A DNA stretch of 48,469 bases from a virus, in the IMG/VR virus record IMGVR_UViG_3300025646_000067, positions 1 through 48,469 of that record, one strand, 5' to 3'. Under the pieces are notes generated by a model that saw only the letters and a list, made by a program, of their open reading frames with translations, searched no databases and had not been told where the DNA came from. Each line of letters starts with the position of its first letter. Position 1 is the first letter of the stretch. Made by a program: the position numbers and the translations under genes. Below, piece by piece: positions 33,156 to 45,283 of the stretch.

Positions 33156-35416
33156 TATCCACCAATGTTATAGATTGCTTTAACGATAAACAAATGAGGA
33201 TTATCATTATCAATTGAAGAAAATTTTGCTATAGGAGATTGATTTGGACTATTAGTTGCACCGTTATTAGTATATTTATTATCAGGTAATGGTAAAGGTA
33301 ATATGGTCAGTGGTTCAGCATTATAATCCATCTCAGGTATACCTATAGAACTAGATCTATTCATCATTTGCCCTTCACTTATATAATCTTGACTTACTTC
33401 TTCACCTGCACTTGAAGAAGATCCATATGTTGGATTTCCTGAAGTAATATAGTTGACAAAAGCTTCATGTCCTGCAGGTTCTGCATCCAAATGCAAGTGA
33501 TCAACATAGTTACCACCACTTCTTCCTTGTGTTCCAATAATAGTGCCAGCTTTTATTCTAGTTCCTCTCCTAAAATTTCCAAATCTACTCAAGTGAGCGA
33601 ATAGCATATTACCAGTGGCATTTTTAACCACAACAGTATTTCCATAACCACCAGCGACACCTTTATAAATTACTTCAGAATCTAAAGGAACTGGTACATC
33701 TGAATTTGGTGAAGTTTGAAGATCTGTTCCGTTTAATAATGTATAATCTTTTGGATATCCATCCGTTCTTCTTGTAGTAGGACCACTATGGTGAGGTCTA
33801 AGATCCCGATAAGAATATGTTTGACCAGGATTTAATAGTTTATTTCCTCCCCCATTTACACTAAAATATTTTATTCTTCCAGCATATCCTCCACTGGACA
33901 TTGCTTTTATTTTATTAGAAGCTGCAGTTTTTGGTTTATTTGCATTAGGACCACCAAATACAGCATTTAAACTAAGAAGATTTTCTACGCCATAAGAATC
34001 TGCAGCTTTTTTATTAATAACAACTTCTCCTGGTTGTGCAGCAATAAGTTGTGTATCTGGTCCCAATCCAGAAATAGTTATTCCACTATTTTTGTCTATA
34101 GCTCCACCAGATTTAAATGATAGATCTTTGGCATTTATAACCGTTTTTTCATTATTATTAACATTTATGATTTGTCCTCCAGATTGTTGAGATTGAACAG
34201 GAGAACTTGATGGAACATCTGCAAAAGTTGCTTCTGGTATTAAACCATCATCTGGAAGATTTGGTATTTGAGGTATTTGTACAGGATCTTTAATCGGATC
34301 TGGTTTAATGGGAATCCAGTTTGGAATGGAGTTTATTATTCCATTAATAGTATCTGTTAATGCTTTTAACCCACTATTAACAGCATCAATCATACCTCTT
34401 ATTGGTTGAATAAATGTATCATCTATCCATTTTATTATACCATTAAAAAATCCTATGACATTGTTTATAATGTCTTGTATTGGTTTAAGTATTATTTGTG
34501 GATTTTTTATTATATTAAGAAGTCCTTTAAGAAATCCACCAAGTAAAATAAACTTAAAAAAGTTTAATATTCTATCAAAAAAGTTTTCAAAAGGAACTAT
34601 TGCTTTTTCAGCTTTTTTAGAATCTTTATCATCATCAGTTTTTTCTAGATAAGATTCTCTCGATTTTTTATCTTCTCTTGATTTTCGTATTCTTTGTTTT
34701 TCTTGATCCGATCTTATTAACTTAGATTGAGATTTAAATGATTCTATTATAGAGTTTATACTTTTTTTTATAGAGTCTAACTCTTTTACTATAGAATTTA
34801 ATACTTTTTGCTCTTGTTTTTGCTTATCTTCATCATCTTTTAATGGTAATAACTTTTTAACGTCGATCTTACCAGATTCAATTTTTGATATTACTATTTT
34901 TGAAGATTTTTCTGCTATTTCATCAATATTAATATCTTTTTTTTCTTCCTCTTTTTTTTCCTCTTTTTCTTTTTCTTCTTTTACTTCTTCTTTTACTTCT
35001 TCTTTTACTTCTTCCTTAATATTATCTTTTACTTCTTCCTTTATTTCTTCCTTTACTTCTTCCTTAATATTATCTTTTATTTCTTCCTTAGCATCATCTT
35101 TTACTTCTTCACTTACTTCTTCAGTTACTTCTAATGGAAGCAACTTATCAACATTTATTTTCTTTGATGTTATTGATATGTCATCTTTTGTATCATCATT
35201 TTGTTCTTGTTCTTCAACAAATGAGTTAGCCATGTCGCTAAGATCATTTGCATTCCCTTTAAAAAGATCTGAATCTATATTTCTTTGTTCTGTTTCACTT
35301 AAAGAGTTATAAAAAGCAGAAAGAATTTTTATTTGTTCATCAGTAAGCTTAGATACTATTTTTTTACCGAGCTTAAACTCATATGCCTTTCTTAGTTTTT
35401 CTGCTCGACTACTCAT
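33155..35416 (-). CDS. tape-measure-like protein with C-terminal M23 endopeptidase domain, 753 aa
   Basis: 753 aa. The N-terminal 90 residues are helical (RAEKLRKAYEFKLGKKIV). Residues about 95-160 are a Lys/Glu-rich KEEV repeat, probably a long coiled coil or charged helix. A hydrophobic segment follows (FFKFILLGGFLKGLLNIIK, about 270). The C-terminal third holds an M23 metallopeptidase: HH (about 540), GTD (about 563) and the HLHLD box (about 637). M23 enzymes cut peptidoglycan cross-links. The HxH box is intact, and the first His and Asp fit the usual spacing loosely. It shares RKSREDKKSRESYLE and the next hydrophobic part with the 921-aa neighbour. Confidence 0.75.
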   Translation of the reverse strand: MSSRAEKLRKAYEFKLGKKIVSKLTDEQIKILSAFYNSLSETEQRNIDSDLFKGNANDLSDMANSFVEEQEQNDDTKDDISITSKKINVDKLLPLEVTEEVSEEVKDDAKEEIKDNIKEEVKEEIKEEVKDNIKEEVKEEVKEEVKEEKEKEEKKEEEKKDINIDEIAEKSSKIVISKIESGKIDVKKLLPLKDDEDKQKQEQKVLNSIVKELDSIKKSINSIIESFKSQSKLIRSDQEKQRIRKSREDKKSRESYLEKTDDDKDSKKAEKAIVPFENFFDRILNFFKFILLGGFLKGLLNIIKNPQIILKPIQDIINNVIGFFNGIIKWIDDTFIQPIRGMIDAVNSGLKALTDTINGIINSIPNWIPIKPDPIKDPVQIPQIPNLPDDGLIPEATFADVPSSSPVQSQQSGGQIINVNNNEKTVINAKDLSFKSGGAIDKNSGITISGLGPDTQLIAAQPGEVVINKKAADSYGVENLLSLNAVFGGPNANKPKTAASNKIKAMSSGGYAGRIKYFSVNGGGNKLLNPGQTYSYRDLRPHHSGPTTRRTDGYPKDYTLLNGTDLQTSPNSDVPVPLDSEVIYKGVAGGYGNTVVVKNATGNMLFAHLSRFGNFRRGTRIKAGTIIGTQGRSGGNYVDHLHLDAEPAGHEAFVNYITSGNPTYGSSSSAGEEVSQDYISEGQMMNRSSSIGIPEMDYNAEPLTILPLPLPDNKYTNNGATNSPNQSPIAKFSSIDNDNPHLFIVKAIYNIGG
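34940..35127. repeat. degenerate KEEV/KEEI codon repeat
   Basis: A long purine/pyrimidine-skewed tract (TTACTTCTTCTTT-type units) coding on the minus strand for tandem KEEV/KEEI/KDNI tetrapeptides, about 16 units. Such low-complexity tracts can expand and contract. Confidence 0.8.
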
Positions 35417-44691: not shown

Positions 44692-44721
44692 ATATTAGCA
44701 TAAAAAAAAGAAGGGTGTCAA
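44692..44721 (-). promoter_or_regulatory. sigma70-like promoter embedded in a terminator
   Basis: Minus strand TTGACA (44716-44721), 18-bp spacer, TAATAT (44692-44697). The -35 hexamer lies in the loop and arm of the terminator at 44702-44729, so the same DNA ends one transcript and starts the next (54-aa gene, 61-aa gene, thyX). Confidence 0.7.
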
Positions 44722-44729
44722 CCCTTCTT
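44702..44729 (-). terminator. rho-independent terminator
   Basis: Minus strand stem AAGAAGGGT / ACCCTTCTT (9 bp), TGAC loop, then a T-run (44702-44707). It ends the transcript that starts at the NtcA-type promoter (45255). The last codons of the 56-aa gene are inside the stem. Confidence 0.85.
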
Positions 44730-44888
44730 ATTATAGATTGGTTGAATGATTAATACTCTTTCAAACCAATCTCGTAAGTGTATACGATAGCAAGACCAGT
44801 ACCTACACCCTCTATATGTTAGCTGATAGCAAGCAGGTGGTCTGTTATCTTTATCCATATCATCATAGTGATATGTGTAGTCGTTCAC
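44718..44888 (-). CDS. tiny DUF4278-like protein, 56 aa (GTG start)
   Basis: 56 aa with CYQLTYRGCRYWSCYRI, a YRGxxY motif like that of the 45-aa protein at 44986. GTG at 44886-44888 overlaps the TAG of the preceding gene (TAGTG), with GGAG 7 bp upstream, so this start is well supported. The C-terminal coding part runs into the terminator stem. Several cysteines (20, 28, 33) could bind metal, but this is a guess. It is third in the nitrogen-responsive-looking operon. Confidence 0.55.
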   Translation of the reverse strand: MNDYTYHYDDMDKDNRPPACYQLTYRGCRYWSCYRIHLRDWFERVLIIQPIYNKKG

Positions 44889-44986
44889 TACTTTGCTCCG
44901 ACAAGTTGTGCTAGTTGTGCTTGGTGACGGCGTTGCTCTTTTTGCTTCTTCTCTTTAATGAGTTGAAGGAAGTTGAGTTTCTGCAT
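44888..44986 (-). CDS. 32-aa conserved helical peptide
   Basis: 32 aa, MQKLNFLQLIKEKKQKEQRR then HQAQLAQLVGAK, a basic amphipathic helix. Start ATG overlaps the stop of the 45-aa gene (TAATG), and the stop overlaps the next GTG, a strict chain of couplings that supports it as a gene. No function is known. It is the middle gene of the tiny tricistron under the NtcA-type promoter and leader RNA. Confidence 0.6.
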   Translation of the reverse strand: MQKLNFLQLIKEKKQKEQRRHQAQLAQLVGAK

Positions 44987-45123
44987 TATTTATGTCCCTC
45001 TTTAACAAACTTAACACCACGATAGTTTTCGTTGTATTGTTGGGGCTGTTGCATCATCTGCTGCTGATAAGCAATACGCTTTTCGGTATCATATTCGACA
45101 CCACGATATACTACTTTTGCCAT
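44986..45123 (-). CDS. small DUF4278-like protein, 45 aa
   Basis: 45 aa beginning MAKVVYRGVEYDTEKRIAYQ, then Gln-rich, ending NENYRGVKFVKEGHK. YRGVxY resembles DUF4278, a family of small cyanobacterial and cyanophage proteins often found beside glutamine riboswitches. The ATG is preceded by AGGAG. It is the first gene of an operon with an NtcA-type box, sigma70-like promoter and RNA leader (45159-45247). The internal YRGVxF duplication suggests a two-repeat mini-domain. Confidence 0.65.
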   Translation of the reverse strand: MAKVVYRGVEYDTEKRIAYQQQMMQQPQQYNENYRGVKFVKEGHK

Positions 45124-45158
45124 AAGTTTACTCCTAAAGAAATGAGAATGTAGTTTCC

Positions 45159-45247
45159 CGTTCCTTCAGTCGTTTGCGTTCGCTATTTGCGAATAGCGAA
45201 TGAACGATCCGTTCCGCGACTTACTTGCGTCCATTAAAGGATGAACG
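45159..45247 (-). ncRNA. candidate tandem glutamine riboswitch (Downstream-peptide type)
   Basis: Leader RNA between the promoter and the 45-aa gene. Two units read CGTTCA-[stem]-CGCAA...GGAACG: unit 1 at 45210-45247 (TCC/GGA inner stem, core ACGCAAGTAAG) and unit 2 at 45159-45206 (9-bp stem TTCGCTATT / AATAGCGAA with CGCA loop, then CGCAAACGACTGAAGGAACG). CGTTC pairs with GAACG in both. This matches the layout of glutamine-binding Downstream-peptide/glnA RNAs as I remember them. Unit 2's core departs from the consensus. The RNA begins about at the start of transcription. Confidence 0.65.
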
Positions 45248-45254
45248 TTTGGTT

Positions 45255-45283
45255 ATTATAAACCATATAAAATATGTAGTCAA
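45255..45283 (-). promoter_or_regulatory. sigma70-like promoter of the tiny-gene operon
   Basis: Minus strand TTGACT (45278-45283), 17-bp spacer, TATAAT (45255-45260). It transcribes the tandem-aptamer leader and the three tiny genes. Confidence 0.8.

What the first reader, a model, noticed from the sequence alone, without database searches (positions are those of the whole stretch)
45159..45247. Tandem glutamine-riboswitch-like leader controlling three tiny phage genes
The leader from the promoter at 45255 contains two back-to-back units with the frame CGTTCA...CGCAA...GGAACG separated by 3 nt. Each closes by CGTTC/GAACG pairing. Unit 1 has the ACGCAAGTAAG core. Unit 2 keeps the outer stem and an unusually long 9-bp inner stem but has a diverged core. 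Glutamine-binding Downstream-peptide/glnA RNAs occur singly or in tandem and precede very short ORFs in cyanobacteria and marine phages. Here they would let the phage sense host glutamine before making the DUF4278-like peptides. Alternatives: unit 2 binds a different amine or has lost binding.
Basis: partly seen in the sequence, partly recalled or inferred. Interest (0 to 1): 0.85.

Follow-up and report, generated by a model that had tools for sequence, protein, structure and literature searches.

The report
Interlocked double glutamine riboswitch in cyanophage
A virus of marine cyanobacteria carries an RNA glutamine sensor built as two sensors fused back to back through one shared stem (the second inside out), a layout kept across many cyanophages that probably switches on three tiny viral genes when the host cell has plenty of nitrogen.

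Summary
The RNA is real and is a glutamine-I (glnA, RF01739) relative, but it is not two independent tandem aptamers. Unit 1 carries the 5' half-core (CGCAAGUA) and unit 2 the 3' half-core (GAAGGAACG). A helix, AGUCG/CGACU, joins the units as one shared P3. The fold is an outer Gln-I three-way junction whose P3 is capped by a second, circularly permuted junction.

Comparative data decide the topology. In 124 distinct relatives the crystal-known 'linchpin' pair follows the nested pairing in 124/124 (outer) and 119/124 (inner) cases; the tandem pairing fits only 97/124 for each. The linker is never shorter than 3 nt, and P3 and the inner P1 covary. A nested covariance model built without the window scores it 75.4 bits, against 40.7 for RF01739. 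Both junctions keep the ligand-contacting nucleotides, so I infer two glutamine sites. The 3' half of the switch can pair with the Shine-Dalgarno region (OFF), so glutamine should turn on three small ORFs, the first weakly DUF4278-like.

Binding is untested. I found no description of this layout, but key papers could not be read. In relatives, whole genes (38 of 38 long P2 arms) sit inside the P2 hairpin.

The parts
45255..45283 (-). sigma70-type promoter, TTGACT (45283-45278) - 17 nt - TATAAT (45260-45255); expected transcript start just before 45247
   Evidence: 11 of 12 consensus matches
   Evidence: RF01739 40.7 bits; nested model R1 75.4 bits
45243..45247 (-). outer P1 5' strand CGUUC, pairs with GAACG 45163-45159
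   Evidence: nested topology from linchpin covariation
45230..45241 (-). outer P2 hairpin UCC-UUUAAU-GGA (in many relatives this arm holds a whole ORF)
   Evidence: helix 2, 100% paired with double changes
45222..45229 (-). outer J2/3 CGCAAGUA; C45227 forms the linchpin pair with G45158; AGUA would form a loop-E motif with GAA 45167-45165
   Evidence: X-n2 Watson-Crick in 124/124; loop E from knowledge of Gln-I
45217..45221 (-). shared P3 5' strand AGUCG, pairs with CGACU 45172-45168
   Evidence: covarying; RF01739 alignment
45210..45214 (-). inner (permuted) P1 5' strand GAACG, pairs with CGUUC 45206-45202
   Evidence: compensatory CAACG/CGUUG in relatives; linker never below 3 nt
45207..45209 (-). 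3-nt cap GAU; G45209 = inner linchpin partner of C45176
   Evidence: Y-n1 Watson-Crick in 119/124; Y=G scan gives n1=C 11, U 2
45202..45206 (-). inner P1 3' strand CGUUC
   Evidence: as above
45179..45200 (-). inner P2 hairpin UUCGCUAUU-CGCA-AAUAGCGAA (9 bp)
   Evidence: fold; helix 8
45173..45178 (-). inner J2/3 CGCAAA (C45176 linchpin); lacks the loop-E AGUA
45168..45172 (-). shared P3 3' strand CGACU
45158..45167 (-). outer J3/1 GAAG + P1 3' strand GAACG + linchpin nucleotide G45158
45161..45169 (-). OFF-state strand CUGAAGGAA, complementary to UUUCUUUAG 45142-45134 next to the SD
   Evidence: MFE; conserved in the n2=G class
45131..45142 (-). expression platform UUUCUUUAGGAG with Shine-Dalgarno AGGAG 45135-45131
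44986..45123 (-). ORF 1, 45 aa, phrog_5049, weak DUF4278
44888..44986 (-). ORF 2, 32 aa, weak phrog_545
44718..44888 (-). ORF 3, 56 aa (GTG start), no family found
44708..44729 (-). intrinsic terminator closing the three-gene unit

Best explanation
A bivalent glutamine-I riboswitch. The 5' CGUUC pairs with the 3'-most GAACG and encloses an ordinary Gln-I three-way junction (P1, P2, CGCAAGUA, P3, GAAGG). The apical loop of P3 is replaced by a second, circularly permuted junction: GAACG-GAU-CGUUC capped P1', P2', CGCAAA. The two junctions therefore share P3 in a pseudo-two-fold arrangement. Shown here by comparison: the nested topology, the shared P3, retention of both linchpin pairs, and conserved complementarity to the SD region. 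Inferred: both junctions bind L-glutamine; binding at one end of P3 helps the other, giving a steeper response; without glutamine the P3-3'/J3-1/P1-3' strand (CUGAAGGAA) pairs with UUUCUUUAG and hides the SD; with glutamine the SD is free and the small ORFs are translated (ON switch).
For: RF01739 aligns 45249-45155 as one aptamer with a 48-nt P3 insert. Outer linchpin X-n2 is Watson-Crick in 124/124 distinct relatives (98 C-G, 26 G-C) and inner Y-n1 in 119/124, against 97/124 for each tandem alternative. A scan for inner Y=G that left n1 free gave n1=C in 11 and U in 2 of 13 true RNAs. All four X/Y combinations occur. The linker has a minimum of 3 nt in 125 and 154 distinct RNAs. Inner-P1 compensatory change CAACG/CGUUG occurs in L308 and L405-408. 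The innermost P3 pair is standard in 44/45 unique strand pairs versus 19.9 shuffled. Whole structure: 93.8% of cells paired, 103 double-change cells versus 21.8 shuffled and at most 14 when slid. Held-out nested model gives 75.4 bits on the window. SD-region pairing: mean 5.4 bp versus 2.2 shuffled, at least 4 bp in 90% of the n2=G class; the n2=C class uses a different SD hairpin. The ligand-contacting nucleotides known from the crystal structures (PMC6698751, PMC11477058) are present at both junctions.
Against: No binding data. The inner site lacks the loop-E strands (AGUA/GAA), so it could be structural only. By nearest-neighbour energies the OFF fold (-40.5 kcal/mol) beats the ligand-free ON fold (-25.5) by 15 kcal/mol, so switching would have to rely on tertiary contacts and on folding during transcription. 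P1 is almost invariant, so its topology rests on the linchpins, the linker length and one inner-P1 variant background. In the commonest P3 class positions 3 and 6 are C.A and A.C mismatches. Sequences are related, so shuffle counts overstate independence.
Confidence: 0.75

Rival explanations
1. Ordinary tandem pair of glutamine riboswitches, each closed by its own CGUUC/GAACG, the second degenerate.
For: True tandem Gln-I doublets exist in related phages (L017, L136, L162, L188: two RF01739 hits each) and in the literature (157 doublets, PMC9481103). Local P1 pairings are possible.
Against: Linchpin covariation rejects tandem pairing (97/124 against 124/124; 73%/71% against 100%/96%). The half-cores are split between the units. 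In true tandems each unit has a complete core.
Confidence: 0.05
2. One functional Gln-I aptamer only; the inner permuted module is a rigid cap on P3 that does not bind glutamine.
For: Only the outer junction has the complete RF01739 core including loop E. In L269 and L011 the inner module is replaced or degenerate while P3 and the outer core are kept.
Against: The inner CGUUC/GAACG, CG-N-A and the inner linchpin are nearly invariant or covary, whereas the adjacent P2b arm drifts more freely. A mere cap would not need ligand-site nucleotides.
Confidence: 0.25
3. The inner site senses a different small molecule (a glutamine analogue), making a two-input switch.
For: The inner junction lacks loop E and differs from Gln-I and Gln-II consensus.
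Against: The nucleotides reported to contact glutamine in Gln-I/Gln-II are retained; no gene association points to another ligand.
Confidence: 0.06
4. A Downstream-peptide (Gln-II) pseudoknot formed by unit 1.
For: RF01704 aligns to unit 1 at 20.4 bits.
Against: Far below its gathering score of 33; most of the 3' P2 helix of Gln-II fails to pair in that alignment; linchpin data place the partner at the far GAACG.
Confidence: 0.02

Closest known systems
Glutamine-I riboswitch (glnA RNA, RF01739)
   Same: P1 CGUUC/GAACG, P2, J2/3 CGNAAGUA, GAAGG, linchpin pair; above gathering score; cyanobacterial/cyanophage setting; upstream of a small ORF with weak DUF4278 similarity
   Different: P3 loop replaced by a second circularly permuted junction with its own P1, P2 and linchpin; RF01739 gave no hit over gathering for S-PM2, S-RIM32 and syn9
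Tandem glutamine-I riboswitches (PMC2864571, PMC9481103)
   Same: two glutamine cores in one leader
   Different: true tandems have two complete, separately closed aptamers; here the cores are interlocked and share P3
Glutamine-II (Downstream-peptide RNA, RF01704)
   Same: CGUUCA/CGC/GGAACGG ligand-site nucleotides; precedes very short ORFs; the inner junction likewise lacks loop E
   Different: no H-type pseudoknot or 3' P2; 20.4 bits, below gathering
Tandem glycine riboswitch
   Same: two same-ligand aptamers in one leader (general knowledge)
   Different: glycine aptamers are sequential and complete; here the halves are intertwined through a common helix

Membership tests
Glutamine-I riboswitch (RF01739) | covariance-model score at or above gathering (35 bits) | tested here: met
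   40.7 bits
Glutamine-I riboswitch (RF01739) | three-way junction P1/P2/P3 with CGNAAGUA and GAAGG | tested here: met
   outer junction
Glutamine-I riboswitch (RF01739) | linchpin pair between J2/3 and the nucleotide after GAACG | tested here: met
   C45227-G45158; 124/124 in relatives
Glutamine-I riboswitch (RF01739) | P3 closed by a simple loop (typical form; the model tolerates inserts here) | tested here: not met
   P3 carries a second permuted junction; filed as a variant for this reason
Glutamine-I riboswitch (RF01739) | binds L-glutamine | not testable with these tools
   needs probing or ITC
Tandem glutamine riboswitch | two complete, separately closed aptamers | tested here: not met
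   split half-cores; linchpins follow nested pairing
Glutamine-II / Downstream-peptide (RF01704) | score at or above gathering (33 bits) | tested here: not met
   20.4 bits
DUF4278 (PF14105) for the first downstream ORF | score at or above curated cut-off (25.3) | tested here: not met
   18.9 bits, E 0.002, (weak resemblance only)

The most novel reading that the evidence does not exclude
A two-fold pseudo-symmetric, interlocked double aptamer: a natural glutamine sensor and its circularly permuted copy share one helix and bind two ligands cooperatively. In relatives its P2 arms have been used to house complete genes, so that one RNA toggles between translating the embedded gene (aptamer open) and the downstream genes (aptamer folded on glutamine).
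Probability: 0.45. Interest if true: 0.9.

Novelty: new variant of a known kind. Interest (0 to 1): 0.77.

Why it matters
A natural circular permutant of a riboswitch interlocked with the normal form through a shared stem would be a new way to build a multi-site RNA sensor. It makes cooperativity in glutamine sensing directly testable and explains why the standard model scores these leaders erratically (one long hit, two short hits, or none). It is widespread in T4-like cyanophages, so it bears on how phages read host nitrogen status. The relatives with genes inside aptamer arms offer a testable case of a riboswitch choosing between two overlapping translational fates.

Tried and rejected
The tandem reading was rejected on linchpin covariation and split cores. 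Gln-II membership was rejected on score. A scan for inner P1 variants at the second U found none, so P1 gives little covariation; only the C-G to G-C change at its junction end was found (L308). The 16-nt core of the UUCGCUAUUCGCAAAUAGCGAA arm recurs in many relatives; in the window it occurs only in this arm, so it was not pursued. The 22-codon frame running through the element (45234-45166) was treated as chance. Searching bacterial genomes gave 93 pattern matches; after filtering only two were this RNA, both with phage-like neighbourhoods. The search for related loci could not take the 45-aa ORF. Primary papers on Gln-I (Ames and Breaker 2011; Klahn 2018) could not be read, so 'not described before' is limited to what was readable.

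Full report
WHAT IS THERE. On the - strand a sigma70-type promoter (TTGACT-17-TATAAT, -10 ending at 45255) is followed by a leader of about 125 nt, three small ORFs (45, 32 and 56 aa) and an intrinsic terminator at 44729-44708. speD (S-adenosylmethionine decarboxylase) lies upstream and thyX downstream. The record is an IMG/VR virus contig of 48,469 bases. Its best matches in this region are Synechococcus T4-like cyanophages; S-PM2 and S-RIM32 share the speD-leader-small ORF-thyX order.

FAMILY. Rfam finds RF01739 (glutamine-I, glnA) at 40.7 bits, gathering 35. RF01704 (Downstream-peptide, glutamine-II) reaches only 20.4 of the 33 bits needed. So neither unit is a complete aptamer: unit 1 has CGCAAGUA but not GAAGG; unit 2 has GAAGGAACG but not AGUA. 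A helix AGUCG (45221-45217)/CGACU (45172-45168) links them as P3.

RELATIVES. DNA-pattern scans of IMG/VR hit their limit of 120 contigs each. Parsing gave 183 doubled RNAs, 125 distinct, later 154 distinct, plus 11 true tandems with two complete cores. Isolates with the doubled form include S-PM2, ACG-2014f, S-SM2, S-H25, S-RS29, syn9 and S-RIM32. A genome-collection scan with the X=C pattern found only two doubled RNAs among 93 matches, both next to phage-like sequence. The element therefore looks phage-borne.

TOPOLOGY TEST. In both solved glutamine riboswitches the ligand-bound state has a linchpin pair between the third base of J2/3 (CG-N) and the base just after GAACG (Gln-I G23-C60, PMC11477058; Gln-II C19:G41, PMC6698751). 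Ordinary single Gln-I RNAs obey it here too: G-C 99, C-G 16, G-U 2. In the doubled RNAs the outer base X pairs with the base after the LAST GAACG in 124 of 124, and the inner base Y with the base after the FIRST GAACG in 119 of 124. The tandem alternative fits 97 of 124 for each. A separate scan for inner Y=G, leaving n1 free, returned C in 11 and U in 2 of 13 real RNAs (one further match is a coding false positive). All four X/Y combinations occur. With the tool's own counting the nested linchpins are 100% and 95.6% paired and the tandem ones 73.3% and 71.1%. The linker between GAACG1 and CGUUC2 is 3 nt or longer in every case (3: 79, 4: 56, 5: 11, 6: 8), as a hairpin loop requires (the parser only looked from 3 nt up, but the parser allowed 0-14 nt and also found none below 3). 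A compensatory change in the inner stem (GAACG to CAACG with CGUUC to CGUUG) occurs in L308 and L405-L408.

SHARED P3. Its innermost pair is G-C, U-A or A-U and is standard in 44 of 45 unique strand pairs (shuffled mean 19.9, maximum 32). The outermost pair is A-U, G-C, G-U or C-G in 39 of 45. For the whole nested structure 93.8% of cells pair and 103 cells show double changes, against 21.8 after shuffling and at most 14 when slid. Two positions of the 8-bp class are usually C.A and A.C mismatches; the window's 5-bp class is fully Watson-Crick. A covariance model of the nested form, built without the window, scores the window 75.4 bits and S-PM2 90.4 bits; RF01739 gave no hit above gathering for S-PM2.

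TWO SITES? The inner junction has the order P3-GGAACG-cap-CGUUCA-P2-CGNAA-P3, which is the Gln-I order circularly permuted and opened at P3. It keeps the bases that contact glutamine or build the site in the crystals (C1, G2, C58, G59, the J2/3 G, the linchpin) but lacks the loop-E strands AGUA/GAA. Its P1 is nearly invariant: scans for variants found four contigs and none. I infer, without proof, that it also binds glutamine.

HOW IT PROBABLY WORKS. The ligand-free minimum-energy fold pairs CUGAAGGAA (P3-3', J3/1, P1-3') with UUUCUUUAG at the SD. Across the n2=G class this pairing averages 5.4 bp against 2.2 with shuffled leaders and reaches 4 bp or more in 90%. In the n2=C class a CUCUUU/AAGGAG hairpin hides the SD instead. 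Both are incompatible, wholly or at the linchpin base, with the ligand-bound fold, so glutamine should turn translation ON. This agrees with the ON behaviour reported for Gln-I upstream of gifB and for Gln-II in front of DUF4278 genes (PMC6316151). Computed energies favour OFF by 15 kcal/mol without ligand, so folding during transcription and tertiary contacts must matter. The first ORF is phrog_5049 with a weak DUF4278 match. DUF4278 is the N-terminal part of the glutamine-synthetase inactivating factor IF17 (PMC6316151), so a role in host nitrogen control is plausible but unproven.

GENES INSIDE THE APTAMER (relatives, not the window). In 38 of 38 relatives with a long outer P2, that arm holds an ORF whose ATG lies 10-13 nt after the start of CGUUC and whose stop lies in or near the P2 3' strand or inside CGCAAGUAA (read as R K stop). 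The 38 proteins share two invariant cysteines, and their differences fall 2371:1431:4261 at codon positions 1:2:3, as for coding DNA. Several match PHROGs of unknown function (phrog_6471, phrog_13397, phrog_504). In syn9 both arms hold annotated genes, gp196 and gp197. Translating such an ORF must open the aptamer, which suggests a toggle between embedded and downstream genes (inference).

NOVELTY. Tandem glutamine riboswitches are known (PMC2864571, PMC9481103), as are cyanophage glnA RNAs (PMC9964418). I found no description of an interlocked, shared-P3 or circularly permuted form in the papers I could search. Primary Gln-I papers were not readable here, so this is provisional. I file it as a new variant of glutamine-I riboswitches.

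Noticed in passing
L239, L240, L246, L252, L253 and others (outer P2); L411, L412, L413, L414, L415 (inner P2): Complete small ORFs (about 54-70 codons, two conserved cysteines in the outer-P2 set) sit inside the P2 hairpins of the double riboswitch, with start and often stop codon in the stem; syn9 gp196 and gp197 occupy both arms.
   Followed up: partly
window 45179-45200; the same 16-nt core in 58 of 445 loci: The inner P2 arm UUCGCUAUUCGCAAAUAGCGAA recurs almost unchanged in many relatives, sometimes as the outer P2 (L095, L308), although P2 is otherwise free to vary; perhaps a mobile hairpin cassette.
   Followed up: no
L188:2004-2087, L136:3748-3835: freshwater-2 RNA (RF02980) lies about 200-230 nt downstream of true tandem glutamine riboswitches in phage contigs.
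   Followed up: no
n2=C relatives such as L002, L103, L113: A second expression-platform type: CUCUUU directly after GAACG pairs with the SD AAGGAG, using the linchpin base itself.
   Followed up: partly
window 34916-35146: Low-complexity 12-nt-period repeat (14 overlapping copies).
   Followed up: no
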